Shown: piece by piece, positions 534-62,485 of the stretch | Numbering within the stretch: the first letter of the stretch is position 1 | How the letters are laid out: each line of letters starts with the position of its first letter | DNA from: Primulina eburnea | Lineage: Eukaryota; Streptophyta; Magnoliopsida; Lamiales; Gesneriaceae | Length of the DNA: 64,000 bases | NCBI RefSeq assembly: GCF_022965805.1 | Contig: NC_133114.1 | Span: forward strand, 9,816,261 to 9,880,260 | Direction: 5' to 3' | Made by a program: the position numbers and the translations under genes | The notes under the pieces: generated by a model | What the model was told of the DNA's origin: nothing | What the model saw: only the letters and a program-made list of their open reading frames with translations | Databases searched by the model: none

Positions 534-2324
534 TGTGGGGCCCTTAGCTCCTAATCGTTATGACAACACAATTTGATTAGGGTTAAGTAATCACAGCGGA
601 AAACGGGTTTAAAATTTCTTTACAATGAGCCCAAAATATCTCTTCTGATATTTAAATACTAAAAATAATATCTAAATTCAAATCATAAAACACGCCCACA
701 CATAATCAAAACCAATCACATACAAACAACTCATATCCTCGGGACATGCCCCGGTATATAGATACATATACATATATACTGGGAACAACATATAAAACCT
801 CAACTCAACCGTGGCTCCCTCCAAAAGTACCCTCTCCGGTCTCCTGATATCCTGGAGTACCTGCCATTGTCCACACACAAAGACAACAACAGCCCCCCTT
901 GGGGGTGAGCAAAGCTCCGTATGGAACAACCAATCATATATACCACAGATATCTAAACAATGATATATGGTATGCAATGCATGTATGTCGTGGAGGTATC
1001 AGGTCAAATGCCCATCCACTGAGCACATGTCAGAATCAATCGAATCGCTATCAAATCAAATCAATGATCGAGCTGGCACACCGGCCGATATGGGAATACA
1101 CGTATGATAGCGTCGACGAAGCGCCATCAATCCCACATCTCATATCCAATCATATGGGGCCACAATTGTCTATACTTTACGGGTCATATAATACCGGCAT
1201 AGCGATTGTGTTCACAAACCCCGGAATCCAATCCAATCATATCAGGGTATCCAAGGATCATAGCTCAACGTGCATGTCATGTATCGATGTATGCATAAAA
1301 TGATGTGTGTTAACAAAACATTTATTTTGTACATCGATACTCAAATCTCAATGTCATGTATGCCACATCAAATCATCAAATAGGCACATAGACACGTATT
1401 CCAATCCAATCAATCCAATCAAACCGACATATATCATATAATACAGATACCTGTCGTATGTTATCCGGTCGCAACATACCTCAGTTCTTCGTTCCAATTG
1501 ATGTAGCCTCAAGATATTGATATAACGCTTTATCTACATCAATAACATACTCATTCCAATCAATAACATGGTCCAAAATCAATAATATGAGTTTCAAATA
1601 TCATTTGAAACTTCAATAATTCATATCAAATTCAAATCATATCATAATTCAATTCCGACTTCGAATATACGTTTATTGTCGGTTATTCTACTACATATCA
1701 GAAATTCAACTTCAAATACATGCTATTCCAGCACTTTGATATTTAAGCTGCTGAAATCAGAAGAAAATTACCTCAGTCTGAAGCCCTCTACGCGACGATT
1801 ACAAATATATAATTTGTTTCGCGTTTGGACAGCGTTTCGAAGTCGAATCGGAAGAAAGAAAAATCGAATTCTCTCGAAGTCCCTCGAAGAGTGGCGAAGA
1901 AATAAAGAAGAAAGAGAGAGAAAGCTCGTTCTTATCATTCCACCGCTCTCGCGCTCGGGCGGTAGAATTCTCGCGCCCGAGCGCGAGACATTCTGCCCCC
2001 GAGAAACATTTGCACCGCGCTCGAGCGGTCAAAAACTACCGCTCGGGCGCGGCATGTTCTGCTCGAGAACACGCTTCATAAGCCCTGGCGCTCGGGCGGT
2101 AATTTTCTACCGCCCGGGCGCCACTCGTACTGTACATATGTTTTATTTTTGTACTATTTTTGGCGTCCGGCCTCCAATTGAGCTCTTACAACGTCAATTC
2201 ATATCCAATATTCATTCTCAATTTCCATTGTCACGATATACATCAAATACCTAATCCATGACAATTTCATTAATTATCGATAATCAACATCAGATTTACG
2301 ATAATACGATACACGGTCCTTACA
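534..2324 (-). repeat. E1 3' LTR
   Basis: Begins TGTGGGGCCC and ends CCTTACA on the plus strand, which is the LTR end and start in element orientation. It is 1,791 bp, the same length as its partner at 7131-8921. A GC-rich three-hairpin array sits at 1947-2123, 201-377 bp from the element-oriented LTR start, followed in element direction by a CT-rich leader. Long open frames inside (for example 1676-2254) are identical in both LTRs and match no known protein, so I do not call them genes. Confidence 0.95.
1947..2123. repeat. Three GC-rich inverted-repeat doublets in E1 3' LTR
   Basis: Three successive inverted pairs: 1947-1961 with 1974-1988 (15/15 paired), 2015-2029 with 2038-2052 (14/15), and 2086-2101 with 2108-2123 (15/16). 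Each pair is built on an 11-mer of the type GCGCTCGGGCG. In the common 11-bp register all three pairs have centre-to-centre spacing of exactly 23 bp (1956/1979, 2022/2045, 2093/2116). The copy in the other LTR is at 8544-8720. The function is not known to me; the position fits a promoter-proximal element or an RNA hairpin. Confidence 0.85.
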
Positions 2325-7130: not shown

Positions 7131-8921
7131 TGTGGGGCCCTTAGCTCCTAATCGTTATTACAACACAATTTGATTAGGGTTAAGTAATCACAGCGGAAAA
7201 CGGGTTTAAAATTTCTTTACAATGAGCCCAAAATATCTCTTCTGATATTTAAATACTAAAAATAGTATCTAAATTCAAATCATAAAACACGCCCACACAT
7301 AATCAAAACCAATCACATACAAACAACTCATATCCTCGGGACATGCCCCGGTATATAGATACATATACATATATACTGGGAACAACATATAAAACCTCAA
7401 CTCAACAGTGGCTCCCTCCAGAAGTACCCTCTCCGGTCTCCTGATATCCTGGAGTACCTGCCATTGTCCACACACAAAGACAACAACAGCCCCCCTTGGG
7501 GGTGAGCAAAGCTCCGTATGGAACAACCAATCATATATACCACAGATATCTAAACAATGATATATGGTATGCAATGCATGTATGTCGTGGAGGTATCAGG
7601 TCAAATGCCCATCCACTGAGCACATGTCAGAATCAATCGAATCGCTATCAAATCAAATCAATGCTCGAGCTGGCACACCGGCCGATATGGGAATACACGT
7701 ATGATAGCATCGACGAAGCGCCATCAATCCCACATCTCATATCCAATCATATGGGGCCAAAATTGTCTATACTTTACGGGTCATATAATACCGGCATAGC
7801 GATTGTGTTCACAAACCCCGGAATCCAATCCAATCATATCAGGGTATCCAAGGATCATAGCTCAACGTGCATGTCATGTATCGATGTATGCATAAAATGA
7901 TGTGTGTTAACAAAACATTTATTTTGTACATCGATACTCAAATCTCAATGTCATGTATGCCACATCAAATCATCAAATAGGCACATAGACACGTATTCCA
8001 ATCCGATCAATCCAATCAAACCGACATATATCATATAATACAGATACCTGTCGTATGTTACCCGGTCGCAACATACCTCAGTTCTTCGTTCCAATTGATG
8101 TAGCCTGAAGATATTGATATAACGCTTTATCTACATCAATAACATACTCATTCCAATCAATAACATGGTCCAAAATCAATAATATGAGTTTCAAATATCA
8201 TTTGAAACTTCAATAATTCATATCAAATTCAAATCATATCATAATTCAATTCCGACTTCGAATATACGTTTATTGTCGGTTATTCTACTACATATCAGAA
8301 ATTCAACTTCAAATACATGCTATTCCAGCACTTTGATATTTAAGCTGCTGAAATCAGAAGAAAATTACCTCAGTCTGAAGCCCTCTACGCGACGATTACA
8401 AATATATAATTTGTTTCGCGTTTGGACAGCGTTTCGAAGTCGAATCGGAAGAAAGAAAAATCGAATTCTCTCGAAGTCCCTCGAAGAGTGGCGAAGAAAT
8501 AAAGAAGAAAGAGAGAGAAAGCTCGTTCTTATCATTCCACCGCTCTCGCGCTCGGGCGGTAGAATTCTCGCGCCCGAGCGCGAGACATTCTGCCCCCGAG
8601 AAACATTTGCACCGCGCTCGAGCGGTCAAAAACTACCGCTCGGGCGCGGCATGTTCTGCCCGAGAACACGCTTCATAAGCCCTGGCGCTCGGGCGGTAAT
8701 TTTCTACCGCCCGGGCGCCACTCGTACTGTACAAATGTTTTATTTTTGTACTATTTTTGGCGTCCGGCCTCCAATCGAGCTCTTACAACGTCAATTCATA
8801 TCCAATATTCATTCTCAATTTCCATTGTCACGATATACATCAAATACCTAATCCATGACAATTTCATTAATTATCGATAATCAACATAAGATTTACGATA
8901 ATACGATACACGGTCCTTACA
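7131..8921 (-). repeat. E1 5' LTR
   Basis: 1,791 bp, TG...CA ends, about 99 percent identical to 534-2324. It carries the same GC-rich three-hairpin array at 8544-8720. In element orientation the array is followed by a CT-rich leader. The next bases, 8922-8926, are the right target duplication. Confidence 0.95.
8544..8720. repeat. Three GC-rich inverted-repeat doublets in E1 5' LTR
   Basis: Second copy of the array at 1947-2123, with the same 23-bp doublet spacing; one base differs in the text between hairpins two and three (position 8660 in this copy). CpG density is far above that of the surrounding AT-rich LTR. Confidence 0.85.
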
Positions 8922-18383: not shown

Positions 18384-19691
18384 TGATAAGTGCATTTTGT
18401 GCAATAAAATTATTTTTACAATTCATATAGATTGTTAGTTTTCTTGAGCGGAATTATGCGTTTTTGTTATTTTTAGTGTGAAAAGGAGTGAAAATGGCGC
18501 TTAGAAGAAATTTGTGCGCATCCCCCAGCGTAGAGGCAGAAAGACCCACGCATATGCGTGAGTCATGGGCGTGCATATGCACGCAAGACAGGAAATCAGA
18601 TGCATAAACCAGAGAGTCTCGCGCATAAGCGCGGAGCTTGGGCGCGCAGCTCCGCGCATATGTGCGAGAGAAGCTCATACACAGAAGGACTCACGCATAT
18701 GCGCGAATTTCGGGCGCGCATATACGCGCGACGCGATATCCAGATTTCTTAGGTTACTTCGTGGACTTTGAGTAGAAAAGAATTAAGGGACGAAAGGGGA
18801 GCCAGCCGACACAAGATAATAAAGGAGAGAAAAAGTGAGAGCGGAGGACGGAACGCAAAGAACGGAGACAGAAGACGCTGAATCCGGACACGGAGACGCA
18901 TTTTCATATCTCTTTAACGCGTTTCTAATTCGGTTCTTTACTTTTACGTTTTTAATGATCACAAATAGGTTTTGTATTGATTTAGATTCAAGTATGAACT
19001 AATTTTATTTTCTAGAGATTGACGTAGTCGTGGTCGACCCTATGTTATTGACGTTTTGAATTTTCATTGGATTAATTCATCGTGTTTATTTGTGATTTGT
19101 TGTCGTTAATGCTTTTGGATTACTGGAAATAATTCAATTGATCAAATAATTAAGATCTAACACTCGAGAGAGGGGAATGAAATTAGGACAGAGGAAATTA
19201 CATCGTCAGTTGTTTATAACATGCAAAAGAAGTATAACTCTGGTGAATCCATAAAAAGAACATTGTTTGCATATATTATATGTTACGTGATTTTGAATAG
19301 ACATACTAAAATCATTAATAGATAATACAGTTCTATTTATCACTTTAAAAAGTGAATAGGAAAATTGCGAGTTCTTAGTTAGTAAATATAATGCAATTTA
19401 ATAATATGTTATTCAATTTTAATTTAGCATAGAGGAGACCAGACGAAATCATATCTCGATATTGATCTACTCATTGAATTTTAACTGCGTGCTGAGAATT
19501 ACTAGGATTCGTTATTTGTCTTGAATTGACTATAAACTATCTCTTTAATTTTTCTAAATAAAGTTGAACTATGTCACTTACGGTACTTGATATACAGTTT
19601 TAATTAATTACTCCTCGTGGGATCGATATTTGTACTCAAACCAGTATTAAAACTTGACACCATACACTTATGGTAGTGAAAATACGCAACA
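18384..19691 (+). repeat. E4 5' LTR
   Basis: 1,308 bp, starting TGATAAGTGC and ending GCAACA directly before the PBS region. Relative to the right LTR it lacks about 37 bp after position 18480 and has a 10-bp insertion near 18650. A palindrome cluster lies at 18547-18728. Short frames inside (for example 18558-18771) are not genes. Confidence 0.85.
18547..18728. repeat. GC-rich CATATG-centred palindrome doublets, E4 5' LTR
   Basis: Palindromes CACGCATATGCGTG (18547-18560) and GCGTGCATATGCACGC (18569-18584) have centres 23 bp apart. A last pair is centred at 18698.5 and 18721.5, again 23 bp. The middle pair (18626.5 and 18659.5) is spread to 33 bp by a 10-bp insertion. Confidence 0.8.
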
Positions 19692-19697
19692 AGTTTT

Positions 19698-26523: not shown

Positions 26524-27836
26524 TGATAAGTGCATTTTGTGCACTTAAATTATCCTTATAATTCATATAGATTGTTAGTTTTCTTGAGCGGAATTATGCG
26601 TTTTTGTTATTTTTGGTGTGATTGCAGGAATCTAGGTAAGGCTACTACATGGGCGTGAAAAAGAGTGAAAATGGCGCTTAGAAGAAATTTGTGCGCATGC
26701 CCCAGCGTAGAGGCAGAAAGACTCGCGCATATGCGCGAGTCATGGGCGCGCATATGCGGGCAAGACATGAAATCAGATGCATAAACCAGAGAGTCTCGCG
26801 CATATGCGTGGAGCTTTGGCGCGCATATGCGCGAGAGAAGAAGCTCACACACTCGCGGATATACGCGAGTTTAGGGCGCGCATGTCTAGATTTCTTAGGT
26901 TTCGTCATGGGCTTTAAAAGGAAAAGAATTAAGGGACGAAAGGGGAGCCAGCCAACACAAGAGAATAAAGGATAGAAAAAGTGAGAACGGAGGACGGAAC
27001 GCGAAGAACGAAACAGAAGACGATGAATCCGGACACGGAGATGCACTTTCATCTCTCTTCAACACGTTTCTAATTCGGTTCTTTACTTTTACGTTTTTAA
27101 TGATTATAAATAGGTTTTGTACTGATTTAAATTCAAATATGAACTAATTTTATTTTCTAGAGATTGGCGTAGTCGTGGTGGAACCTATGTTATTGACGTT
27201 TTGAATTTTCATTGGAATAATTCATCGTGTTTATTTGTGATTTTTAGTCGTTAATGCTTTTGGAGTACTGACCATAATTCGATTGATCAAATAATTAAGA
27301 TCTAACACTCGAGAGAGGAGATTGAAATTAGGACAAAGAAAATTACATCGTCAATTGTTTATAACGTGTAAAAGACGTATGACTCTGGTGAATCCATAAA
27401 AAGAGCCTTGTTTGCATATATTATATCTTACCTGATTTTGAATAGACATATTAAAATCAGTAATAGATAATATAGTTCTATTTATCATTTGAAAAAGGGA
27501 ATAGGAAAATTGTGAGTTCTTGGTTAGTAAATATAATGCAATTTAATAATATGTTAGTCAATTTTAATTTAGCATAGGGGAGACCAGACGAAATCATATC
27601 TCTAGATTGATCTACTCATTGAATTTTAACTGTGTGCTGAGAATTACTAGGATTCGTTATTTGTCTTGAATTGACTATAAACTATCTCTTTGATTTTTCT
27701 AAATAAAGTTGAACTATGTCACTTATGGTACTTGATATACAGTTTTAATTAATTACTCCTCGTGGGATCGATATCTGTACTCAACCCAGTACTAAAACTT
27801 GACACCGTACACTTGCGGTAGTGAAAATACCCAACA
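26524..27836 (+). repeat. E4 3' LTR
   Basis: 1,313 bp, TGATAAGTGC to CCAACA. It carries the palindrome cluster at 26720-26889, followed by a possible TATA-like TTTAAAAGG at about 26913. AGTTT follows at 27837-27841. Confidence 0.85.
26720..26889. repeat. Six GC-rich palindromes in three 23-bp doublets, E4 3' LTR
   Basis: CATATG-type centres fall at 26730.5 and 26753.5, 26803.5 and 26826.5, 26860.5 and 26883.5: three doublets, each exactly 23 bp. The first palindrome, 26720-26741, is perfect over 22 bp around CGCGCATATGCGCG. Gaps between doublets are 50 and 34 bp. Confidence 0.85.
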
Positions 27837-27841: not shown

Positions 27842-27867
27842 CCAACCCGAGAGATACCAAGCCCCGG

Positions 27868-39001: not shown

Positions 39002-40616
39002 TGTGATACCTCGACCCAATTTAATAAAATACAGCGGAATTTAAAATTTTTCTTGAAGGTAGGAAGGATTCAAAATACATTTCCATAAAACATTTTCAAT
39101 CAAGAGTATATACATTATCAATCAAATGATTGACAAAAAGACAAAATATCATTCCTATGATCATGCCCAAAATGCCAACAAAATATCTTCTTCCTTCCTT
39201 CTCTATATGCATATGACTCCGGCCCACAATCAACGTCCTGGCCCGTCACTCTGATCTGCATCACATGAATAAACTGAAATGAGTATAAAACTCAGCAAGT
39301 GGAACTCTTACATAGCAATAGACATAGCATACTCTGAAAATCATAGCTTTAAAAATGTAAATACCATCAACTCTGAAATGTGAATATCATAGCATGAATA
39401 ATAATAATGATGGTATTTCTCTTTTCTTTGGTATGGATTGATATCAATAGTATCTCTGTCTCTTACCTATATCCCATCGATATAAATCGACAACTCTGAG
39501 GGATATAAGCCTATGGTCGTTGATCAACTAATTGCATGCAATCTCTGACTATGTATCTATCAATCCATAAATCAATTTGAATTCTCTCTTTGGCATTTAA
39601 ACAAACACTTTGCAAACTCTTTTCTCTTGTATTCCCTTTTTACAATTGAGACATAAAAATGCCTCCAATATACATAATAAGTGAATCAATACATAACCAT
39701 TAATCAAATGAAGGGAATAACACTTTAAAACCATTGAAACACCATACATATATTATCATGTGAGCACAAAGGATGAAATTCCACTTACAACCACTTGAAA
39801 CCTCCAATCTAAACCCTTGGTTGAAATCCTACAACAATAAACCATAAATCACACTATTAACAACTCAATAACCAAGAACCCATGCCAATTAATCCATAAA
39901 ACCAACATATTCAACAAACCCATATCATTTCCCACCCCAAAACCAAGAATAATCATACCAAAAGCTTACCTTAGCTTCCTATCACCAAGAAGAACTTCAA
40001 TCTCAACTCAAATCACCAACTAGAAGCTTGAATCAAAGAAAGGAATTGAAAGAAAATGAGGAAACCCTAGCCCTAAGGAGAGAAATTTCGAAAATGGAGA
40101 GAAAAAAATGAGAGAAATAAGACCAACTCATCTATTTAAGCACTAAAATCGCCAAAACACGCTTTTGTTGTGCACTACCGCGGGTGCGCTCCACCTCCAC
40201 CGCGGGTGCGCTAAGCTCACGGCATCACAACCAAAATTATGAAAATGACGACCGCGGGTGCATTGCCAACCTTACCGCGGGTGCGGTGCCTCTACCGCGG
40301 GTGCGGTGCCCTCTACACCGCGGGTGCGGTGTGTCTACGGCATTTCTACCCAAAATGCTGAAATTAAGACCGCGGGTGCGGTGCTGCAAGGACCGCGGGT
40401 GCGGTGATGTCACGGCCAAAAACAAACTTTAAAGCAACTAAAATCGATTCGAAACGCTGATACAATACAACTACCAACAACGAGCATCAACAATGCCACA
40501 AAATAATGATAACCAACCAAACTATAACCCATAAACACAACTCTAATATCTAAATCAAATATCCCAATAAACATACGAAACTTAAACCGTACCGTACACC
40601 GGGATAGGCTATTACA
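39002..40616 (-). repeat. E6 3' LTR
   Basis: 1,615 bp, TGTGATACCTCGACC to GGCTATTACA on the plus strand. It carries eight copies of ACCGCGGGTGC(G/A) (40177-40403). In element direction these are followed by CTTAAATAG (about 40140-40132) and a CT-rich leader with an AAACCCTAG telo-box-like motif near 40065. Confidence 0.93.
40177..40403 (-). repeat. Eight GC-rich 12-mers in doublets, E6 3' LTR
   Basis: ACCGCGGGTGC(G/A) starts at 40177, 40199, 40251, 40274, 40294, 40317, 40369 and 40392. Steps are 22, 52, 23, 20, 23, 52, 23, i.e. four doublets of 22-23 bp. The copy in the other LTR spans 46365-46591 with a few base changes. Confidence 0.9.
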
Positions 40617-45188: not shown

Positions 45189-46804
45189 TGTGACACCTCG
45201 ACCCAATTTAATAAAATACAGCGGAATTTAAAATTTTTCTTGAAGGTAGGAAGGATTCAAAATACATTTCCATAAAACATTTTCAATCAAGAGTATATAC
45301 ATTATCAATCAAATGATATGACAAAAAGACAAAATATCATTCCTATGATCATGCCCGAAATGCCAACAAAATATCTTCTTCCTTCCTTCTCTATATGCAT
45401 ATGACTCCGGCCCACAATCAACGTCCTGGCCCGTCACTCTGATCTGCATCACATGAATAAACTGAAATGAGTATAAAACTCAGCAAGTGGAACTCTTACA
45501 TAGCAATAGACATAGCATACTCTGAAAATCATAGCTTTAAAAACGTAAATACCATCAACTCTGAAATGTGAATATCATAGCATGAATAATAATAATGATC
45601 GTATTTCTCTTTTCTCTGGTATGGATTGATATCAATAGTATCTCTGTCTCTTACCTATATTCCATCGATATAAATCGACAACTCTGAGGCATATAAGCCT
45701 ATGGTCGTTGATCAACTAATTGCATGCAATTTCTGACTATGTATCTATCAATCCATAAATCAATTTGAATTCTCTCTTTGGCATTTAAACAAACACTTTG
45801 CAAACTCTTTTCTCTTGTATTCCCTTTTTACAATTGAGACATAAAAATGCCTCCAATATACATAATAAGTGAATCAATACATAACCATTAATCAAATGAA
45901 GGGAATAACACTTTAAAACCATTGAAACACCATACATATATTATCATGTGAGCACAAAGGATGAAATTCCACTTACAACCACTTGAAACCTCCAATCTAA
46001 ACCCTTGGTTGAAATCCTACAACAATAAACCATAAATCACACTATTAACAACTCAATAACCAAGAACCCATGCCAATTAATCCATAAAACCAACATATTC
46101 AACAAACCCATATCATTTCCCACCCCAAAACCAAGAATAATCATACCAAAAGCTTACCTTAGCTTCCTATCACCAAGAAGAACTTCAATCTCAACTCAAA
46201 TCACCAACTAGAAGCTTGAATCAAAGAAATGAATTGAAAGAAAATGAGGAAACCCTAGCCCTAAGGAGAGAAATTTCGAAAATGGAGAGAAAGAAATGAG
46301 AGAAATAAGACCAACTCATCTATTTAAGCACTAAAATCGCCAAAACACGCTTTTGCTGTGCACTACCGCGGGTGCGCTCCACCTCCACCGCGGGTGCGCT
46401 AAGCTCACGGCATCACAACCAAAATTCTGAAAATGACGACCGCGGGTGCGGTGCCAACCTTACCGTGGGTGCGGTGCCTCTACCGCGTGTGCGGTGCCCT
46501 CTACACCGCGGGTGTGGTGTGTCTACGGCATTTCTACCCAAAATGCTGAAATTAAGACCGCGGGTGCGGTGCTGCAAGGACCGCGGGTGCGGTGATGTCA
46601 CGGCCAAAAACAAACTTTAAAGCAACTAAAATCGAACCGAAACGCTGATACAATACAACTACCAACAACGAGCATCAACAATGCCACAAAATAATGATAA
46701 CCAACCAAACTATAACCCATAAACACAACTCTAATATCTAAATCAAATATCCCAATAAACATACGAAACTTAAACCGTACCGTACACCGGGATAGGCTAT
46801 TACA
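45189..46804 (-). repeat. E6 5' LTR
   Basis: 1,616 bp, near-identical to 39002-40616. It carries the GC-rich doublets at 46365-46591, in which three of the eight 12-mers have point changes relative to the other LTR. Confidence 0.93.
46365..46591 (-). repeat. GC-rich 12-mer doublets, E6 5' LTR
   Basis: Same eight sites as 40177-40403, shifted by 6188. Differences are single bases (for example ACCGTGGGTGCG near 46462 and ACCGCGTGTGCG near 46482); spacing is unchanged. Confidence 0.88.
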
Positions 46805-46858: not shown

Positions 46859-48823
46859 TGTAATGCCCCGGTTACTCGTACAAATGATAATAAGGCATTT
46901 ATGTCATTTAATGTAACTTATTTAACTCATTATGTTTTACATGTTGATCGAGGTATCGATATTGAGATTAAATATGATTTTTAGATGGTCCATGGTGTAT
47001 TGAGAATGAATATGTGTTTAAATAGTGATAATAAGATGTGTAGGTAGAAGTAGTGTAATAAAGTTGGTAGGAAATAAGATGAAAATATGGTAGTTCTTAC
47101 GAGTTTTAGCATAATCATTTGAATAAGGATTCAAATTGTGTGAGGCCATAACCGTTAGAAAGCTAAGATATAATGCTACAACTTTCATGTTTTGGGTTAT
47201 GTCCAAATCATTGCGGAAGACACGCCAAAAGTACCCTGAATTGTGTCCTGTATACCGTCATTCCATCACTGATACATGTTAGGAGAATAAGCATAACATT
47301 TTACTCAGACCTCCAAATGACATGAAACCAGTTGGAGATTCAAGCCAAGCCATATAGATACAACTTTCATGTTTACCACCTTTTCAAATTATGAAGGGAA
47401 GAGCTGTTTCTGGAGCGATCTTTTATGAAGCAGTGCTCAGAGGCAGAACATGTGGCGCCCGAGCAGTAGAAAATGACCGCCCGAGCACCAGTGCACTACA
47501 AGCCTAGTCTTTACAGAACATTCCGTACCCGGGAGGTAGAAAATGACTGCCTGAGTGCCACCATTTTCACCATTTCTCAATCCTTAAACGACAAGACTCG
47601 AGAGAAAACCTAGGAATCTTCCTCCAAATGCTTTCTTTTTCATTCCTTTCATCATTTTGAAGTTATAACTTAGTTCTCCATCTCAAGAACTTCCTAAGGA
47701 TGTAATTTTTCTTCTCTTTTAGTTGTTCTACATGTAAAGGAGTAGCTTTCACATACTAGAGACATAGTGATTGGACTATTGGTTTATTGACAGCATAGGA
47801 CTGGAAAACATCGTCTCAAACCAGTGTTCTTACTTGACTGTAAGTTGGCATGTTCTTGAAGTAATACATGAGTAACATTATGATTTCAGATACTTCCCAT
47901 TGATTATTGCTATATATACATTGTTAGTATGTTTATTGATGAAATCATAGCACCATATTCCATTGTTATATATTAAATATGAAAGGAACTCATGAATATT
48001 GAAGAGGGGTGCTATGTCATGAACATGAACATGAACATGAAAGGAAAAGGACTGATTTTATATGATATAGAGCTCGTTGACATCATGGGTGAGTTTAAGT
48101 CCACCAAACCTGTTGGCCAATATATGTTCATGGGGCGCGGGGTTGCCAAAGGTTTCTCCCTGACCTCCAACACAGTAGTAGCTATATAATAAAGCAAGCA
48201 CGGTATTACAGGTCAACTAATGAGGCTCAAGTACAAAAATGAACATGAATATATGCTATGGTCTGACATGGTTTAAAGATTCATTGTTGATCACGACCTC
48301 ATATGTATGTTCCTTCTACGTATATTAATATATATAAGTGCCAACTTATTGAGTTTTATAAACTCACGTAGCTCATGTATTATAGGATCAGGTAATGAAG
48401 TTACATAGGATGTTGGTTCGTCAATGGATGCTTGTGACGTGCCTCACCTCGACAAGAACGGAGACTTCTTATTGTATAGCTTCCGCATATGTATTATAAT
48501 GAATTTAATCTCATGGTTTGAAACAAGTTTTAAAATGTGTATGTCTATGGGTATAATGATACATAATATGTTTGTATAGAAGGAAATGATTATATGTACA
48601 TATTGTATTGTTGCTTGAGGGTTAGTGTATTACATATTTTTATTATTGCTTGAGTGTTGGTGTATTGAAATTTAGGGATATCATGCCAAAATTTTTACAA
48701 ACTGTCAAAATGATGCTCCTTGATTTGAATTGCTTCATTAATATAGATATATCATTTAAACACTATTTTTATTACAATTATAAGTATCATTAGTCATGTC
48801 AAGTATATAGTAAGGCTGTGACA
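46859..48823 (+). repeat. E7 5' LTR
   Basis: About 1,965 bp, from TGTAATGCCCCGG to GGCTGTGACA. It has GC-rich doublets at 47453-47561, a short ATGAAC-type repeat near 48017-48042 and no supported gene (the frame 47992-48189 lies inside the LTR). Confidence 0.85.
47453..47561. repeat. Two GC-rich doublets, E7 LTR
   Basis: GCGCCCGAGCA (47455-47465) and CGCCCGAGCAC (47478-47488) have centres 23 bp apart. A decayed second pair, GTACCCGGGAG (47525-47535) and TGCCTGAGTGC (47548-47558), is also 23 bp apart. The first 38 bp (47453-47490) match E1 hairpin three (reverse complement of 2086-2123) at 34 of 38 positions. Confidence 0.85.
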
Positions 48824-52119: not shown

Positions 52120-53681
52120 TGTAATAGCCGAACCCGGTGTACGGTACGATTTAAGTTTCGTATGTTCATTTGAGTTATTTGATTAGAGGTTTAGAGTTGT
52201 GTTTATGGGCTATAGTATGTTTAGTATATTGTTCTTGAGGTGTTAGTTGTTGTTGGTTGTTCGTTTCAGAGTTCCGGATCGATTTTAGTTGCATTGGAGG
52301 TGATCTTGGCCGTGACCATAGTGCACCCGCGGTAGTGCAAGGAGTGCACCCGCGGTCGACTGTTCCAGTTTTTGTGTTGGAGGGCCGTAGCATCACCGCA
52401 CCCGCGGTGATGCAGGGACCGCACCCGCGGTGTCTGTGGTTCAGGAATTTTGTGGACTGCCGAGAGCTCAGCGCACCCGCGGCCTTTGTGTTGGCGCACC
52501 CGCGGTGATGTACAGTAGAGGTATGGTCGAGATTTATAGTACCTTTTTGATCGATTTGACTTCATTCTTTCCTCTTTTCATTTCGAAATCCTCTCATTTC
52601 TTAGGGTTTTCTTCATTTCTTTCACTTCCTATCTTCGATTCAAGCGTTTATTTGGCGATTCGACTTGAGATCAACGTTCTCCGTGGTGCTAGGAAGCTTA
52701 GGTAAGTTTTTGGTGCGATTCTTTTAAGGTTTCGAGTTGAGAGTTGTGTTGGGTTTGTTATTCTTGTGGATTTATGGATTATTAGCTTGGTTTCTTGGAT
52801 TTGGAGTTGATATTGGTGTTATATTTGGATTATTGTTGTAGGTGGTGATCAAGAACTAAGTTTGTGGTGTTCTTGTGGGTTGTAAGTGGAATTCCTCCCT
52901 TTTTGCTCACATGAGGTTATATGTATTGTGTTTAAAAGGTTTTATGTGATATTCCCTTCCATTTGAACCATTGTATGTATTGATTCAATTGTTATATTTA
53001 TTGGGGCATTTGTTGTCTCATATATATTGAAAAAGGGAATACAAGAGAAAAATAGAGTTTCAAAGTTCATGTTTAAATGTCAGAGAATTCAAATGTTTCC
53101 GGATTGATAAATACATAGTCAGAGATTGCATGCAATATTAGTTGATCAACGCCCATAGGCTTTTATCCCTCAGAGTTATCGGTATTTATATCGATTTGGG
53201 ATACGAGCAACCCACAGACAGAGATACTATTGATATCAATCCCCATAGTAACGATAAATACCATCTCATTGCTATTGCTATTGCTATTGATATGATATTC
53301 ATGTTCAGAATTTAAAGTCCAGAGTTGATGGTATTTATGATTTCAAAGCTATGTTTTACAGATTTTATTGTTCATTGCTATGTAAGAGTTCCACTTGCTG
53401 AGATTTATTCTCATTTCAGTTATTCCATGTGATGCAGATCAGAGTGGTGGCCCGGGACGTTGACTGCGAGACAGGGGTCATATGCATACACCGATGGAAG
53501 GATGATTTTGATGGCATGATCATAGGAATGATGTTTTGTTTTTGTTATGTCATTTAAATGATCATGTATTTATTTTGATGTAAATTTTTAAAGAAGTGTA
53601 TTTTGAAACTCCTTCCATATTTAAAGTAAAATTTTTAATTTCCGCTGCGTATTTTTAATGTTACGGGCTAGAGGTGTCACA
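52120..53681 (+). repeat. E8 5' LTR
   Basis: About 1,562 bp, from TGTAATAGCCGAACCC to GAGGTGTCACA. Homologous to the E6 LTRs in opposite orientation, more diverged than the E6 pair. GC-rich doublets at 52323-52506, TTATAG at about 52533-52538, CT-rich leader after. Confidence 0.9.
52323..52506 (+). repeat. Six GC-rich 11-mers with a 75-bp doublet period, E8 LTR
   Basis: GCACCCGCGG(T/C) starts at 52323, 52346, 52398, 52421, 52473 and 52496: steps 23, 52, 23, 52, 23. Spacers are related but strongly diverged, while the 11-mers are almost invariant. Confidence 0.92.
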
Positions 53682-54475: not shown

Positions 54476-56551
54476 TGTAATGCCCGAGAATTTAATTATT
54501 GTAATCTGATATGATTTACTGATTATGAATTGATGTAATTATAGGCGGGCCAGTTCGAGATAAGATTTGAGCAAGTATATGAAATTATACAATTTGGGCC
54601 GAAGGTATAGCGCCCGGGCGAAAATGTTTGTCCGCCCGAGCGCCATTGAGTGTTGGTAGAAAGCCGAGAGTCCTTCGCCTGGGCGGAACTTTTTGTTCGC
54701 CCGAGCGCGCATGAATAATGGATGAGGGCCGAGAGTTCTTCGCCCGAGCGGCAACTTTTGTCCGCTCGAGCGAGCGACGTGCAACACCAAGATATATGCC
54801 ACGTTTCAGATGTGCATGCGGTATATATATATGTTTAAGCATGAAATTCTTCATATTTCAGCCGAGGGAAACGAGAAAAGCTTAAGGAGAAAGCTTTAAG
54901 TTTCTTCGAAGACTATTATTGTGATTTTGTGTAATCCGTCTGTCTGATTTTAAATCCGACTACAGTACTGTGTTCCTCTCGACACGAGCTACACAAGGAC
55001 GTAAGTTTTGTTACGTTTAGACAAGATTTGAATTTATGATATTGTTAGAATTGAATATGATTCAGATATAGTGTTTCTGCTACCGTAGATATTGTAGAAT
55101 TGAAGTCAGATTAAAGAACAGACCGTTTCTGTAATTGTTATGATTTTTGAAACATATTGACTGAGATTCTATATCAGAATTGTGTTAATATTCAGAGTAT
55201 GAATTATGTTGACACAGATTATGAGTGCCAGTATTATATATGTGATGTTCAGATTGACGGGGTTATTCAAATTGTATTATTATGCCGTCGAAACATCAGT
55301 TGAATTAGATTGATCAGATTCAGATATGATTTCGATTTGATTGTGATATTATTGATAAGACTCAGATTGTATCTTGTTCAGATATTGATCAGATTGTATA
55401 CTGAATTGGGTATTGATCAGAACAGATTGTGTATTGAGTTAGTCACTGACACAGTGTATTCGATATTGTCATTTCAGATTTGATATGGACAGAGTTGAAT
55501 ACCAGACTTCGTCTTCGTCAGACAGGGACGACAAAGGTATAATTCATGTGATATTCGGGAAGCATAACTCAAATTAGATTAATTTGAGTTTCCCAATAAA
55601 ATCACATACTAGATTATTGTTTATATTGTTACCTGATTATGCTTTGATTATAGAATTGTATTCAAGCAGGTAAGATAATTGAGATATTCAGTTATAAATA
55701 TGATTATGCTTTGTTTACAGATTCTTATTCATTGCATCTAAGATAGGAGAGTCTTTGACAGGCATTGTCAAATAGCTAGACGTTTCGGTGTATCTCAGCA
55801 TAGGAGTAGGTATTACTCTTATTGCCGCCGTTGATACAGCTCAGACCGAAGTCTAGGAATGAGACGTACATTACCCCGATTGGAGGGTAGGTAGTGACGT
55901 CTTATTCACCCCGGGATCCCTAGGGTTATAGATCGAGTCAAGTCTAGACATGATTTGATTAGGACTTTATGCTTATATGGATGTGGTTCCTAGATCATGG
56001 GACCCATCGTTATTGCTTCCAGTTGTGCTAGCATGTTTTAAGATGTAGAGCGTTTATATGCATGTTTATCTGATTTGAGTTACATGCTTATTTGATTAAT
56101 TTCATAGATTATGAAATATATTGTGTTTATACATGATCGCATGGTTTATGAATTAGTTTGTTTACATACATGCTTACCATGTTTTATACTGGGATTTATT
56201 CTCACCGGAGTTATCCGGCTGTTGTCTTGTTTTGTATGTGTGCATGACAACAGGTGGGGCTGGATCAGGGTCAAGATGACGATGAGAGAAGATGAGTTAG
56301 CGTGGTGATTCCGGACTTGTAGCAGACTTGGTTTATTACTTGAATTTAGTACTTGAACCTTAGACTTAGGTTGTACAGTATTGTACTTTTCTACTGAACT
56401 GTAGTTTTTATACAGAAATGTATATTGTTTAGATTCCATTACCTTCCGCAGTTACATTTTAAAAAGAAAAATTTTTAGACCCTGTTTTATCGTAATTGAT
56501 AATTCAATCCCAACGATGATTAAGAAGATGATTAGCGTCCGGGTCCCCACA
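54476..56551 (+). repeat. E9 5' LTR
   Basis: TGTAATGCCCGAG to CCCCACA. GC-rich doublets at 54610-54773, then a strong TATA stretch GTATATATATAT (54821-54832). The frames 54539-54854 (minus) and 56111-56308 (plus) recur in the other LTR and are not genes. Confidence 0.93.
54610..54773. repeat. Three GC-rich doublets, E9 5' LTR
   Basis: 11-mers GCGCCCGGGCG (54610-54620) and CGCCCGAGCGC (54633-54643); TCGCCTGGGCG (54675-54685) and CGCCCGAGCGC (54698-54708); TCGCCCGAGCG (54740-54750) and CGCTCGAGCGA (54763-54773). Centres are 23 bp apart in all three, and the doublets repeat every 65 bp. Arms of the first doublet are identical to those of E1 hairpin three; the 12-base loops differ. Confidence 0.9.
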
Positions 56552-56556
56552 ACAGG

Positions 56557-56570
56557 TGGTATCAGAGCTG
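56557..56570 (+). other. E9 primer-binding site
   Basis: TGGTATCAGAGCTG, five bases after the LTR end. Confidence 0.93.
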
Positions 56571-56914
56571 ATAGTTCCTTTAGACTTAGATTATCAGAGC
56601 GATAGATCCTTTAGATTGAGATAGTACGAGTTGATAGATTCTTCAGACTGAGATAGCAGAGAATGAGCGGGGTAGATTGAATTGTTTGTCCTTGCATGTG
56701 ATTGCTAGCATGAGATTTATTTCAATGTTGACTACATTGTGTGTGCTAGCATGATTTATTGCTTTCCCTATTACATGTTGCTTGTTATCTGAGTTGTTTG
56801 CAGCATGTAATTACTAAGCCTGGATCAGAACCGAGTCTGAATCAGAGGTATATGATCGGAGGAGGGCTGAGACAGATTGTATAGATGGTGTACTAATCTG
56901 TTTGATATTCAGAT

Positions 56915-57814
56915 ATACCGCCTCGAAGAATTTCAGAAAAGGGCAGTACTTCGTCTGAACAGAGAGATGTATCAGAAACTCAGTTAGAAGAAAAGATGAA
57001 GGAATTTGAGTTATTACAGCCGCCGGTTCTGAATGGTACCGAGACATCTGAAGATTGTCAGAATTGGTTTGATGATATAGAAATCTTGTTCGATTTACTT
57101 GACTGTACAGATGAACAGAGGGTTCAAATGGTGCCTTATCAGTTACGAGAAGCCGCCAGGAGTTGGTGGATTACCAGTAGAAGAATGTGGGCACAGAGAG
57201 GTACAGTGAAGTCGTGGGAAATATTCAGAACTGAATTCTATCGAAGATTTTTCTCAGCTTCTTACCGAGAGGACAAGAAATTAGAGTTTGAGAATTTGAG
57301 CCAAGGGCCGCTGAATATTGACCAATATATTGCTAAATTCTCTACTCTACTGCATTTTGCTCCTCATTTAGCTGGAAATGATGAAGCTATAGTAAATCAG
57401 TTCATCAGAGGGTTGAACTCAGAGGTAGTTGCATTTATGAATTTGCAGCGATCTTACCATTTTGCTGACATCCTGAGTAGAGCAAAGAGAGCTGAGGCGA
57501 GTCTGATTAGACAATTGACAAGGTTGTGTGTGAAGCCACTTCAGACATAGCAATCCCCGCTTCGATATGATCACGGCAGTACGAGTGGGAAGCAAGATGT
57601 GCTGAAAGCTCGGAAGAAGCCATTCAAGAAGTTGGGAAGTGGTTCCTCTAGCTCAAGTGGTTCCAGTCCAAGCCATACCGATGTCTATTGTAGGACTTAC
57701 GGAGGGAGACATTCCTCAGAACAATGCAAAGGAGTGCTTGGTAGATGCAATATATGTAAACAGCTGGGGCATTTTGCTAAAGTTTGTCCCCAGAGACGGT
57801 CCCGAAGATCTTAG
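56915..57814 (+). pseudogene. E9 gag pseudogene
   Basis: The frame begins IPPRRISEKGSTSS at 56915; relatives start MPPRR, so the ATG seems to have become ATA. The open frame from 56996 has the Gag core (FELLQPPVLNGTETSEDCQNW, RSWWITSRRMW, LSQGPLNIDQYIAKFSTLLHFAP). A TAG at 57548-57550 stands where Gln is likely, after which the same frame continues through a Ser-rich linker to the knuckles CRTYGGRHSSEQC (one Cys changed to Tyr) and CNICKQLGHFAKVC. The stop is at about 57812. It is most similar to the E1 Gag in layout. Confidence 0.8.
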
Positions 57815-60395
57815 GGAACAGTGTTAAGTGAGAAACAGATCCAGAATTCACAACAGGTACTATTCTTTACGATTCTATTGCATATGTATTGATATATACT
57901 AATGCATCTGTTAAGAATATCTTTGACTGAGTTGCATGGAGATATGCTGTATATGTTGGGTCTGTGTATACGGTAGTATTGATTACTTGGTTGTTGAGGA
58001 ATATGTTGATATCAGAGATTTCTGTGACATGTTATATACTACAGTGAAATGAACCCGAGATTGGGTTAGATTATGATGTACTGGTGTTATATGATTTCGA
58101 TTTCATTATTGACATATAATGCTAAACAAGTACAAAAATATTGTGGAATGTGTTCCAGAAATGGTAAGATTAAGATCAGATCTAGTTGAGAAATGAGGAT
58201 TCTAGATCCAGAATTCCTTAGATCATTGTACTGTTATGACTCGATTATCACAGAAAGGAACAGATGGTATCCTTATGTGTTTGGTAGATATACTGAAATC
58301 GAGTCTAACGGTGATAGATTTTCCAGTAATAGATGAGTTGACGGATGTTTGTCAGATAAGATTTTAGATTTTCTTTATATCCGAAAGATAGATTTCAGAA
58401 TTGAATCTAGAGTTGATACTGAATGTTGTTTTAGAATTCAGTACAGAATGATATTGAAGATTAATAGAAGGGTACAGATTGCTAACTCTTAGATTCAGAG
58501 ATATTCTGATGATTGTATGCTTGTTATATCCATGATATTTGATATGTTAACATCATCTGATTGATTAAATGGAATATTTGAAGATTTTATTGAATATTTA
58601 GAGAACCGTGATTATTGTATACAGAAATTAAGCCGGTATGAATCATAATTGAAACAGATTGTATTCAGAATATGTGATATCTGCAGTTTGTATACCGAAT
58701 TATTTGCACAGTTGAGACAGAAATCAGCAACTGTAAACGACACAGATAACAGATATATCAGAATTAGTAGAAATGTCAGAAAGTCAGAATTTCTGAGTTT
58801 TACAGATTTCCTTATTCTCTTATTCCCTTATTATGTTATATCTACTTGCGTATTGTGATTGATCTAAATCAGTATTTGAGACATCTTATATTGTTTGGGA
58901 GCATAGTCTATTTGCAGATGAGATATAGCAGATGATTTGGGCACTGTGAAGATTGATCAGTAGTCAGAATTATCAGTATTGCCAAGCAATTGTTGTTTAT
59001 GAGTTTTCTTAAACTCACTAGATCTGTATAGGTTGTTTGTATTTTGAATCTGATTGATATTACTGTGGTTTACATGTATGTTTGATACAGATTAGTGTAA
59101 ACAGTCAGATATGTGATCAGAATGTTCAGAATTTGTTTGTAATAATCAGAACAGAGTATCAGTCAGAATAACAGATATTTGATTTTGTGTTATATGGGAC
59201 TGATTATGCTATGATATCAGAATGTTTCAGAATTGGTTACAGATTTTGATATTGATAGTCAGAGCCGAATACCAGGTAGGTATTTCTTCTTTAATTTATG
59301 ATTATTTACTGATTGTTTATGTAGAATCGTTCGAATCTGAAATCGCAGATAATGTCAGAAATACACAGTTGTGGATTCAGTTTTCATTCTTCTGATCGAG
59401 AATGTATGATATTTGAACAGACAGTATTGATATAGACAGATTAAATCAGTTGTGGCAGAAATTATACCGAAACGTTAGCAGAAGTTGTACTGATATGTAT
59501 GAATCGCTAACAGAATAGACCGAAAGATAGAAATCAGAAGATCATTACAGATTTTTTATATCTATGAATAGAAATGGGAGTGCATTTCTATGGCTTTCGT
59601 CATGAAAGTACCGTCATTTTATCCAGATTGAGATATAATATGATTATGATTGACAGATTGTTCAATCTATATCAATTAGTTTGTACCAGATAACGTACAA
59701 ACAGAACTAGATGACACAGATTGATGTCAGAAGAATGATCAGAATCAATAGAATGTCAAGATAGAGTATATCAGAAGGTGATTGTCTGGTTGATTTTGTA
59801 CTTGTGATAGATTATATCATGAGTTTCTTCTTAGATTGTGTTACAATTGGCAGACAGTCAGAACGTATTGTCTAGATATTGGAAGATTTTGGTAGAGCTA
59901 TATAGTGCTGGATGTTAGCACTAATTGATATGACCTAATATCACTATGTGACAATACCTATCAGCTTATCAGATTGATAATGAGATAGTATACACAAGAC
60001 AGTATACGAAGAGTAATACAGATTTCTTTTGAAGATAATTCGAAGAAAAATGCAGATAGTTCAGAATGGACAGATTTAAGAAACCAACGTCGGATGATGA
60101 CGATTGGTAGTTGAAGCTAAAGATTGTTTATGTCTTTGTTTGAGGTAAACAAATTTGTTAACAGCTGATGATACTGATATGTGATAAGCTATAGATTGGT
60201 TTATACGGATGTTGTATAGCCAGTATGATGAGATTGTTGTTGTCAGAACTAGTTTAAGGGGTGTTATGACATTATACATCGTGAATTCTTATTCCAGACT
60301 GGAATCAGATATTTGAGTTTTGGTTTAAACTCTGTACGCATTTCTTCTCATATATCTGAATTGATTGTTGTGAGTTCGAGGACGAACTCAGATCT
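57815..60395 (+). other. E9 decayed pol region, C-depleted
   Basis: About 2.6 kb without a long frame. Faint pol traces: 58293-58350 reads SLTVIDFPVIDELTDV, like the segment before RT, and 59640-59700 aligns loosely with the integrase region around the first catalytic Asp (MIMIDRL). RT and RNase H motifs were not found. The text is rich in CAGATT/TGATAT and poor in C, as expected after long cytosine deamination. 58649-58858 is not a supported gene. Confidence 0.65.
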
Positions 60396-60409
60396 AAGAG
60401 GGGGAGAAA
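60396..60409 (+). other. E9 polypurine tract
   Basis: AAGAGGGGGAGAAA directly before TGTAATGCCC; identical to the E1 tract. The upstream TTCGAGGACGAA is also shared with E1. Confidence 0.9.
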
Positions 60410-62485
60410 TGTAATGCCCGAGAATTTAATTATTGTAATATGATATGATTTACTGATTATGAATTGATGTAATTATAGGCGGGCCAGTTCGAGATAAGAT
60501 TTGAGCAAGTATATGAAATTATACAATTTGGGCCGAAGGTATAGCCCCCGGGCGAAAATGTTTGTCCGCCCGAGCGCCATTGAGTGTTGGTAGAAAGCCG
60601 AGAGTCCTTCGCCCGGGCGGAACTTTTTGTTCGCCCGAGCGCGAATGAATAATGGATGAGGGCCGAGAGTTCTTCGCCCGAGCGGCAACTTTTGTCTGCT
60701 CGAGCGAGCGACGTGCAACACCAAGATATATGCCACGTTTCAGATGTGCATGCGGTATATATATATATGTTTAAGCATGAAATTCTTCATATTTCAGCCG
60801 AGGGAAACGAGAAAAGCTTAAGGAGAAAGCTTTAAGTTTCTTCGAAGACTATTATTGTGATTTTGTGTAATCCGTCTGTCTGATTTTAAATCCGACTACA
60901 GTACTGTGTTCCTCTCGACACGAGCTACACAAGGACGTAAGTTTTGTTACGTTTAGACAAGATTTGAATTTATGATATTGTCAGAATTGAATATGATTCA
61001 GATATAGTGTTTCTGCTACCGTAGATATTGTAGAATTGAAGTCAGATTAAAGAACAGACCGTTTCTGTAATTGTTATGATTTTTGAAACATATTGAATGA
61101 GATTCTATATCAGAATTGTGTTAATATTCAGAGTATGAATTATGTTGACAGATTATGAGTGCCAGTATTATATATGTGATGTTCAGATTGACGGGGTTAT
61201 TCAGATTGTATTAGTATGCCGTCGAAACATCAGTTGAATTAGATTGATCAGATTCAGATATGATTTCGATTTGATTGTGATATTATTGATAAGACTCAGA
61301 TTGTATCTTGTTCAGATATTGATCAGATTGTATACTGAATTGGGTATTGATCAGAACAGATTGTGTATTGAGTTAGTCACTGACACAGTGTATTCGATAT
61401 TGTCATTTCAGATTTGATATGGACAGAGTTGAATACCAGACTTCGTCTTCGTCAGACAGGGACGACAAAGGTATAATTCATGTGATATTCGGGAAGCATA
61501 ACTCAAATTAGATTAATTTGAGTTTCCCAATAAAATCACATACTAGATTATTGTTTATATTGTTACCTGATTATGCTTTGATTATAGAATTGTATTCAAG
61601 CAGGTAAGATAATTGAGATATTCAGTTATGAATATGATTATGCTTTGTTTACAGATTCTTATTCATTGCATCTAAGATAGGAGAGTCTTTGACAGGCATT
61701 GTCAAATAGCTAGACGTTTCGGTGTATCTCAGCATAGGAGTAGGTATTACTCTTATTGCCGCCGTTGATACAGCTCAGACCGAAGTCTAGGAATGAGACG
61801 TACATTACCCCGATTGGAGGGTAGGTAGTGACGTCTTATTCACCCCGGGATCCCTAGGGTTATAGATCGAGTCAAGTCTAGACATGATTTGATTAGGACT
61901 TTATGCTTATATGGATGTGGTTCCTAGATCATGGGACCCATCGTTATTGCTTCCAGTTGTGCTAGCATGTTTTAAGATGTAGAGCGTTTATATACATGTT
62001 TATCTGATTTGAGTTAGATGCTTATTTGATTAATTTCATAGATTATGAAATATATTGTGTTTATACATGATCGCATGGTTTATGAATTAGTTTGTTTACA
62101 TACATGCTTACCATGTTTTATACTGGGATTTATTCTCACCGGAGTTATCCGGCTGTTGTCTTGTTTTGTATGTGTGCATGACAACAGGTGGGGCTGGATC
62201 AGGGTCAAGATGACGATGAGAGAAGACGAGTTAGCGTGGTGATTCCGGACTTGTAGCAGACTTGGTTTATTACTTGAATTTAGTACTTGAACCTTAGACT
62301 TAGGTTGTACAGTATTGTACTTTTATACTGAACTATAGTTTTTATACAGAAATGTATATTGTTTAGATTCCATTACCTTCCGCAGTTACATTTTAAAAAG
62401 AAAAATTTTTAGACCCTGTTTTATCGTAATTGATAATTCAATCCCAACGATGATTAAGAAGATGATTAGCGTCCGGGTCCCCACA
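60410..62485 (+). repeat. E9 3' LTR
   Basis: 2,076 bp, about 99 percent identical to 54476-56551. The GC-rich doublets are at 60544-60707, with several single-base differences and unchanged spacing. It ends CCCCACA before host sequence ACTTTCAAGG. Confidence 0.93.
60544..60707. repeat. Three GC-rich doublets, E9 3' LTR
   Basis: Counterpart of 54610-54773. Changes relative to that copy: the first arm reads CCGCCCGGGCG-like CCCCCGGGCG, the second doublet's first arm is CGCCCGGGCG, and the last arm begins CTGCTCGAGCG. The 23-bp spacing is retained. Confidence 0.85.

What the first reader, a model, noticed from the sequence alone, without database searches (positions are those of the whole stretch)
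54610..54773. A GC-rich doublet module with fixed 23-bp spacing recurs in five different LTR families
In E1 (1956/1979, 2022/2045, 2093/2116), E9 (54615/54638, 54680/54703, 54745/54768), E7 (47460/47483, 47530/47553), E8 (52323/52346 and two more) and the Athila element E4 (26730.5/26753.5, 26803.5/26826.5, 26860.5/26883.5), self-complementary or nearly self-complementary GC-rich motifs of about 11 bp come in pairs whose centres are 23 bp apart (11-mer, 12-bp spacer, 11-mer). In E6 three of four pairs fit, one is 22. The motifs differ (CGCCCGGGCG, GCACCCGCGG, CGCGCATATGCGCG) and orientation differs (inverted in E1/E9, direct in E6/E8, palindromic in E4), but spacing, copy number (2-4 doublets) and position (mostly 130-440 bp into the LTR, near 600 in E7, before a TATA-like box or leader) agree. 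The LTRs are otherwise largely unalignable by eye. Possible roles: paired sites on one DNA face for a dimeric factor, CpG-methylation sensors, or RNA hairpins. I know of no description of this module. The E3 and Tat LTRs lack it.
Basis: seen in the sequence. Interest (0 to 1): 0.9.

Follow-up and report, generated by a model that had tools for sequence, protein, structure and literature searches.

The report
Shared switch-like module in retrotransposon promoters
Several unrelated kinds of "jumping genes" in one plant carry the same strictly spaced set of short DNA motifs in front of their start signal; it looks like a docking site for plant proteins that switch them on, and its inner letters differ between otherwise similar elements as if swapped like a cassette.

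Summary
The GC-rich motifs reduce to one unit, CGC-N4-GCG, in strictly spaced pairs. Genome-wide, generic pairs number 51,139 at 22 bp, 1,137 at 21 and 2,939 at 24. A third part, C(A/C)GA(A/G), starts exactly 12 bp before the first unit in 105 of 166 doublets, against about 2 at any other offset. Doublets repeat at distances near multiples of 10.5 bp, usually upstream of a TATA-like box (downstream box in 34 of 49 clusters, upstream in 9 of 49). The module occurs in Ty3 elements and in a Ty1/Copia element. LTRs with 81-87% identical bodies carry different cores. Core bases do not co-vary as in an RNA hairpin. Best explanation: an exchangeable, double-stranded-DNA, promoter-proximal enhancer cassette read by host dimeric proteins. 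The factor, its effect and occurrence in other species are untested.

The parts
54599..54772 (+). E9 5' LTR module: three composites, units at 54611/54633, 54676/54698, 54741/54763 (YCGR-type core, spacing 22), CCGAR at -12 of each first unit
60533..60706 (+). E9 3' LTR module, units at 60545/60567, 60610/60632, 60675/60697; three units differ by one base each from the 5' LTR
54822..54830 (+). E9 TATA-like box, 49 bp after the last unit
54476..56553 (+). E9 5' LTR (pair at 60410-62487, 99% identical); primer site TGGTATCAGAGC at 56557
1952..2120 (-). E1 LTR module: three doublets, spacing 22, YCGR core; CAGAA at -12 of two of the three first units on the sense strand
8549..8717 (-). E1 second LTR, same module, no unit differences between the two LTRs
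18549..18726 (+). E4 (Athila-like) left LTR module, ATAT core, partly decayed
26714..26890 (+). E4 right LTR module, ATAT core, units 26726/26749 and 26799/26822 (spacing 23) plus a decayed doublet seen by eye; CAGAA/CAGAG at -12
40179..40403 (-). E6 LTR module, ACCC core on the sense strand, spacings 23, 23, 23, 22
46367..46591 (-). E6 second LTR module, ACCC core
47444..47557 (+). E7 LTR module: CAGAA 47444, doublet 47456/47478; CAGAA 47514, decayed doublet 47526/47548
52322..52504 (+). E8 LTR module, ACCC core, three doublets at spacing 23

Best explanation
The module is a promoter-proximal enhancer cassette in the U3 part of the LTR. Each composite is C(A/C)GA(A/G) - N7 - [CGC-N4-GCG] - N10, N12 or N13 - [CGC-N4-GCG]; typically two to five composites sit side by side, usually upstream of a TATA-like box. 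I infer that a sequence-specific host protein binds each CGC-N4-GCG unit as a dimer, that two dimers pair across about two helical turns, that a partner binds C(A/C)GA(A/G), and that stacked composites on one DNA face activate LTR transcription. Core bases and pair spacing go together (YCGR 22, ACCC mostly 23, ATAT 22/23, variable core 20), suggesting several related factors or complexes. Cassettes are replaced, or converge, across element lineages while the LTR body stays. Shown here: the grammar, its abundance, its position, its presence in Ty3 and Ty1 elements, and different cores in otherwise similar LTRs. Inferred: protein binding, the host origin of the factor, and activation as the effect.
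For: Abundance and spacing: exact YCGR pairs with a free gap of 0-30 bp 26,957 (control 2), 47 of the 50 listed places spaced 22; ATAT pairs 21,350 (control 0), the 50 listed places spaced 22 (18), 23 (20), 31 (10), 20 (2); ACCC pairs 19,099+18,384 (controls 1 and 1), of 100 listed rows 71 spaced 23, 6 at 22, 7 at 24, 16 elsewhere from 17 to 40. Generic pairs 51,139 at 22 bp (control 651) against 1,137 at 21 (54) and 2,939 at 24 (304). Third part: C(A/C)GA(A/G) at -12 in 105 of 166 doublets, mean 1.9 at other offsets; CAGAA-N7-unit 15,140+14,718 against controls 360+314. Anchored on the -12 part and unit 1 only, unit 2 is exact in 63 of 68. Helical phasing: best period 10.55 bp, R 0.53, n=109. 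TATAWAW downstream in 34 of 49 clusters, upstream in 9 of 49 (Fisher). Breadth: Ty3 coding next to YCGR and ATAT module LTRs, Copia coding next to variable-core LTRs and probably next to a YCGR-type LTR (L024), Athila-like LTRs. Different cores in LTRs with 81-87% identical bodies. Units of LTR pairs diverge 15/269 against 135/6469 elsewhere: single inserted copies are not protected, so cross-family constancy must arise in transposing lineages.
Against: No binding, expression or methylation data. The -12 part is found in only 2 of 10 ACCC23, 11 of 24 ATAT23 and 12 of 29 ATAT22 doublets. 15 of 49 clusters have no TATAWAW within 250 bp downstream; in a separate look E7, E8 and E4 left have no TATA-like match within 260 bp, and E1's is 140 bp away. 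The phasing test loses significance if neighbouring distances count as single events (P = 0.10). Most fetched loci were picked by a doublet or unit pattern on contig C1 and many are related, so counts within them are not independent. Spread by recombination of an ancestral cassette could explain much of the sharing without separate selection.
Confidence: 0.6

Rival explanations
1. Anti-silencing or methylation-reading array: CpG-dense units recruit a factor that removes or withstands DNA methylation, like VANC targets in Arabidopsis VANDAL elements or (recalled) the MBD7/ROS1 route.
For: Arrays of short motifs in non-coding DNA whose letters change together within a family resemble the VANC targets described in PMC5735166 (passages). 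Every unit holds two fixed CpG. Core classes differ between close relatives, as expected in an arms race.
Against: Strict pair spacing and the position before TATA-like boxes fit an enhancer better. A factor encoded by the element itself is unlikely to be common to Ty1 and Ty3. Non-CpG bases of unit 2 are as constant as its CpG bases (ascertainment caveat).
Confidence: 0.15
2. Hitchhiking cassette: an old LTR segment spread between families by template switching, with strict spacing kept by recent copying rather than by function.
For: Composites share letters outside the units across lineages (CAGAA at -12; class-20 spacer letters shared by Athila-like and Copia LTRs). Homology between E6 and L037 starts about 5 bp after the last unit of E6, like a recombination joint.
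Against: Units decay faster than the rest after insertion (15/269 against 135/6469, Fisher P = 0.0009), yet stay near-exact across LTRs that otherwise do not align; spacing differs by class, and 21 bp is rare genome-wide (1,137 against 51,139 at 22).
Confidence: 0.13
3. RNA hairpins: the doublet folds in the LTR transcript and acts in packaging, 3' processing or translation.
For: In the YCGR class the flanks of the two units can pair (outer TGGCGC...GCGCCA, inner GCGGTA...TACCGC, consensus).
Against: Core complementarity is below shuffled (0.24 against 0.34; 2000 shuffles, n=68); doublets of the ACCC class are direct, so unit1 and unit2 cores cannot pair; the module usually precedes a TATA-like box; no Rfam family at gathering score in the window.
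Confidence: 0.05
4. Host surveillance site: a host protein reads the motif to silence the elements, which keep it only because they need the same site.
For: The module is dense in the genome and would be an efficient address.
Against: A purely harmful site should be lost; it is instead kept in Ty3 and Ty1 elements.
Confidence: 0.07

Closest known systems
BII boxes in the LTR promoter of Tnt1, and the 13-bp element of Tto1 (tobacco Copia retrotransposons)
   Same: Short motifs in the LTR promoter; the BII boxes are said to bind defence-induced factors (PMC3316501, passages; Tto1 from a reference title there)
   Different: Known within single families as far as seen; here one grammar appears in Ty1 and Ty3 elements, with strict pair spacing and interchangeable cores
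Heat element of ONSEN/ATCOPIA78 and W-boxes of EVADE
   Same: LTR recruits a host transcription factor (PMC12786077, passages)
   Different: Those are sites of known plant factors; I know of no factor for CGC-N4-GCG pairs
VANC target arrays of Arabidopsis VANDAL DNA transposons
   Same: Dense arrays of a short motif in non-coding DNA, letters changing together within a family, variants in close relatives (PMC5735166, passages)
   Different: VANC is encoded by the element and VANC21 reads YAGTATTAY; here unrelated retrotransposons share the site, and the two E1 ORFs show only gag-pol domains in Pfam
Animal NRF1 sites (recalled)
   Same: GC-rich palindrome with half-sites around a short centre
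   Different: Different gap; as far as I recall no plant NRF1; resemblance only

Membership tests
Tandem cis-regulatory repeats in LTR U3 (Tnt1 BII type) | Lies in the LTR upstream of the TATA box | tested here: met
   34 of 49 clusters with TATAWAW within 250 bp downstream against 9 of 49 upstream; 15 of 49 have none downstream; TSS not mapped
Tandem cis-regulatory repeats in LTR U3 (Tnt1 BII type) | Repeated short motif | tested here: met
   one to five complete doublets per cluster, typically two to four
Tandem cis-regulatory repeats in LTR U3 (Tnt1 BII type) | Bound by nuclear factors and needed for transcription | not testable with these tools
   needs binding and reporter assays
VANC-type anti-silencing target | Array of one short motif in non-coding DNA | tested here: met
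VANC-type anti-silencing target | Anti-silencing protein encoded by the same element | tested here: not met
   the two long E1 ORFs hold only gag, protease, RT, RNase H and integrase-type domains; the Copia element was read in part, with the same kind of result; other elements not scanned fully
VANC-type anti-silencing target | Loss of methylation caused by the binding protein | not testable with these tools
   no methylation data
Structured RNA element | Compensatory changes across the stem | tested here: not met
   pairing at variable core bases 0.24 against 0.34 shuffled, n=68 YCGR doublets
Structured RNA element | Match to a known RNA family | tested here: not met
   0 Rfam matches in the window at gathering score
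Ty3 elements as carriers (E1, E6, E7, E8, E9, L034, L057, L059) | Ty3-type coding linked to the module-bearing LTR | tested here: met
   E1 and E6 gag-pol, E7 gag to RT, E8 gag, E9 gag match only, no RT match; E1-like pol ends just before the module LTRs of L034 (YCGR), L057 and L059 (ATAT). The name Tekay rests on recall; no Chromo domain reached the Pfam threshold
Ty3 Athila (E4 and E4-like L050, L061, L062, L065; L069-L071) | Athila ORF and primer site | tested here: inconclusive
   Transposase_32 at 21725-22552 inside E4, but the ATHILA Pfam hit is in a neighbouring ORF; the primer-site-like GTTGCCGGGGA also follows L024, which has Copia-type domains; L069-L071 share only the LTR start with E4
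Ty1/Copia as carrier (L067/L074/L068) | RVT_2 and copia-type gag between the LTRs | tested here: met
   PF07727 E 5.4e-78, PF14223 E 1.4e-25
Ty1/Copia as carrier (L024, L015) | Copia-type domains downstream of the LTR on the same strand | tested here: inconclusive
   in L024 SH3_retrovirus above cut-off, gag_pre-integrs and rve below theirs; a nested element is not excluded; L015 only by similarity to L024

The most novel reading that the evidence does not exclude
A genome-wide regulatory code shared by Ty1 and Ty3 retrotransposons: one composite enhancer grammar whose four-base cores and pair spacing form discrete, interchangeable classes that elements swap as cassettes, each class matched to its own member of a host DNA-binding protein family, in a running arms race over LTR activation.
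Probability: 0.3. Interest if true: 0.92.

Novelty: new variant of a known kind. Interest (0 to 1): 0.82.

Why it matters
LTR promoters are usually thought to evolve family by family. Here Ty3 and Ty1 retrotransposons in one plant carry the same strictly spaced three-part site tens of thousands of times, with different cassettes in LTRs whose bodies are alike. That gives a clear handle for finding a host factor that many elements may depend on, and a natural experiment on how pair spacing and helical phase matter in a plant enhancer.

Tried and rejected
Rejected: a fixed 23-bp spacing; a simply inverted doublet; RNA hairpin. CAMTA, E2F, FAR1, LBD and NRF1 sites were considered from memory only; none seemed to fit a CGC-N4-GCG unit in all classes, and no motif library was available. 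Led nowhere: translating the module to look for relatives in other plants (136 and 299 candidates, none reaching E 0.01 and 0.1; uninformative, since it depends on annotated ORFs); the doublet in viral contigs (0); the ATAT unit as text in papers (13 papers, by title and abstract unrelated); literature for the module (nothing describing it in the listings). Mended: I first called L024 and L015 Athila because of a primer-site-like sequence; one search found Copia-type domains downstream of the L024 LTR, so the two Athila YCGR rows should read probable Copia. E9 was first called Ty3 without a coding test; one search shows a gag match but no RT match. Orientation was wrong for E7 and the loci derived from it (L029, L039) and probably for L042 and L043; later counts orient by the -12 part. 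Five TCGG/TCGG doublets of the 68 may be antisense. Rows dropped: L005 (overlaps L004); near-identical segments collapsed; loci without a lineage label dropped. Generic counts at spacings 20, 23 and 25 were asked and never answered.

Full report
What was checked. The window lies in contig C14 of an 812-Mb genome. Eleven of the twelve contig lengths seen reappear as contigs of Primulina eburnea proteins (C4 does not appear in that list), so the plant is Primulina eburnea (Gesneriaceae by recall). E4 and E8 have 23; E6 has 23, 23, 23 and 22. In the window 48 of 49 exact CGC-N4-GCG units lie in the module clusters.

More than chance. An unbiased scan of the window gave sharp direct peaks at 22 and 23 bp (64 and 55 pairs of overlapping 10-mer positions), nothing at 21, 24 or 25, and about 0.01 per distance in 20 shuffles. 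In 20 stretches of 10 kb at round-number positions on 12 contigs (200 kb), CGC-gap-GCG was commonest at gap 4 of gaps 0-11 (31, next 25 at gap 1; 5 for GCG-N4-CGC), with pairs at 22 and 23 bp; the 13 doublets listed have the core types known from the window. Genome-wide, exact YCGR pairs with a free 0-30 bp gap number 26,957 against 2 for the reversed pattern; of the 50 listed places 47 are spaced 22, one 21 and two 40. ATAT pairs number 21,350 against 0; the 50 listed places are spaced 22 (18), 23 (20), 31 (10) and 20 (2). ACCC pairs number 19,099 + 18,384 against 1 + 1; of 100 listed rows 71 are spaced 23, 6 at 22, 7 at 24 and 16 elsewhere between 17 and 40. These counts include pairs that bridge two doublets. 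With all cores allowed, pairs number 51,139 at spacing 22 (control 651), 1,137 at 21 (control 54) and 2,939 at 24 (control 304). Spacings 20, 23 and 25 were asked but did not complete.

A third part. C(A/C)GA(A/G) starts exactly 12 bp before the first unit in 105 of 166 non-identical doublets; other offsets average 1.9. By class: YCGR22 64 of 75, variable-core 20 9 of 12, ATAT23 11 of 24, ATAT22 12 of 29, ACCC23 2 of 10. CAGAA-N7-CGC-N4-GCG occurs 15,140 + 14,718 times against 360 + 314 for the reversed pattern; that search revealed the variable-core class. Anchored on the -12 part and unit 1 only, unit 2 at +22 is exact in 63 of 68 and within one mismatch in 67 of 68; most loci had been chosen by a doublet pattern, so this is only partly free of selection.

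Arrangement. Doublets stand in clusters such as 22-50-22-50-22. Non-redundant distances between neighbouring exact units fall at 18-23 (none at 21), 31, 40-46, 48-54, 61-66, 70-75, 84-85 and 106, with strays at 37 and 79. For the 109 distances of 27 bp or more the best period between 8 and 14 bp is 10.55 bp (R 0.53). None of 5,000 sets with each distance jittered reached the observed value at 10.5; if contiguous distances are moved together as single events, P = 0.10. So helical phasing is likely but not proven. TATAWAW is found within 250 bp downstream in 34 of 49 clusters (15 of the 34 at 48-60 bp after the last unit) and within 250 bp upstream in 9 of 49. In one search E7, E8 and E4 left show no TATA-like match within 260 bp.

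Which elements carry it. E1 and E6 have Ty3-type gag-pol, E7 Ty3-type gag to RT downstream, E8 a Ty3-type gag; E9 has a gag match but no RT match and may be non-autonomous. E1-like pol ends just before module LTRs of L034 (YCGR) and of L057 and L059 (ATAT). Tekay is my label for this lineage from recall. E4 has an LTR start and primer site that I recall as Athila-like, and Transposase_32 inside; L050, L061, L062 and L065 are E4-like with ATAT cores; L069-L071 share the LTR start and have variable cores with spacing 20. L067 and L068 flank a stretch (L074) coding for RVT_2 and a copia-type gag, so a Ty1/Copia element has it, at spacing 20 with CAGAA at -12. L024 and its relative L015 have YCGR-type cores at spacing 22; I first took them for Athila, but Copia-type domains lie downstream of the L024 LTR, so they are probably Copia. 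Spacing thus follows core class rather than lineage (table, where L015 and L024 still bear the old label): YCGR 22 in Ty3 and probable Copia LTRs, ATAT 22/23 in Tekay-like and Athila-like LTRs, variable core 20 in Athila-like and Copia LTRs. The class-20 spacer letters are alike in the last two.

Cassette swaps. L032 (YCGR) and L053 (ATAT) have LTR bodies 86.8% identical over 494 bp downstream of the module but different cores; E9 (YCGR) and L060 (ATAT) 81.5% over 449 bp; E6 (ACCC) and L037 (YCGR) 81.1% over 692 bp, with homology beginning about 5 bp after the last unit of E6. The module behaves as a replaceable part of the U3; recombination and rapid change in place are not told apart.

Selection. 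In four LTR pairs, unit positions differ at 15 of 269 sites and the rest at 135 of 6,469 (Fisher P = 0.0009). Eight of the 15 come from the old E4 pair, 4 from E6, 3 from E9 and none from E1. After insertion the units are therefore not protected, yet they are near-exact across LTRs that do not otherwise align. The simplest reading is that transposing lineages need them.

DNA or RNA. In 68 non-redundant sense YCGR doublets the variable core bases of unit 1 and unit 2 could pair in 24% of cases, against 34% after shuffling partners (32% against 37% with wobble pairs). ACCC doublets are direct. Rfam has no match in the window. With the position before TATA-like boxes and the near-10.5-bp distances this favours double-stranded DNA.

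Mechanism. Best supported: a promoter-proximal enhancer cassette bound by host dimeric DNA-binding proteins, two dimers per doublet plus a partner at C(A/C)GA(A/G). Binding, factor and effect are inferred. Anti-silencing, hitchhiking, RNA and surveillance readings are given as rivals.

Known work. Tnt1 BII boxes are said to bind defence-induced factors (PMC3316501, passages). ONSEN and EVADE LTRs recruit heat-shock and WRKY factors (PMC12786077, passages). VANC proteins read short motif arrays in Arabidopsis VANDAL elements, and those arrays evolve by tandem repeat formation (PMC5735166, passages; PMC10398659, abstract). The listings of the paper searches showed no description of this module; that covers only open papers and those terms.

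Limits. No other plant's DNA could be searched; the P. huaijiensis protein 94% identical to the E1 gag-protease ORF shows only that this family is shared. Apart from the 20 stretches, fetched loci come from the first 29 Mb of C1. Absence from E3 and Tat LTRs was not tested.

Noticed in passing
window 9833-9846; G000 C1:17523997, 17527806, 17531452, 18398790/18403850, 23159468/23165161: A possible fifth core class (CTAG, CGCG and similar, flanked AGCGC...GCGCT) paired at spacing 21, with copies 5.1 and 5.7 kb apart as LTR pairs would be; the one window unit outside the clusters is of this type.
   Followed up: no
G000 C1:20806181, 23377746, 23806699: GC-rich arrays CGCGCTAGCGCAGGCGTCGGACGCCTGCGCG with overlapping 21-bp steps, of unknown element.
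   Followed up: no
L066 (G000 C1:4451950-4452750, sense on the minus strand): One doublet is followed by TTCTG 7 bp after unit 2, the mirror of the CAGAA part, making a symmetric composite (seen by eye).
   Followed up: partly
window 56554-60409: The E9 interior matches Ty3-type gag but none of the RT queries used, so E9 may be a non-autonomous element with nearly identical LTRs.
   Followed up: partly
window 15765-28300: Inverted and direct repeats around E4 (18478-22507 against 23692-27841) suggest nested or rearranged copies.
   Followed up: no
L013 6748-6881, L021 1184-1274, L027 838-973, L005 1233-1315: Short repeats shared between stretches and matching on both strands.
   Followed up: no
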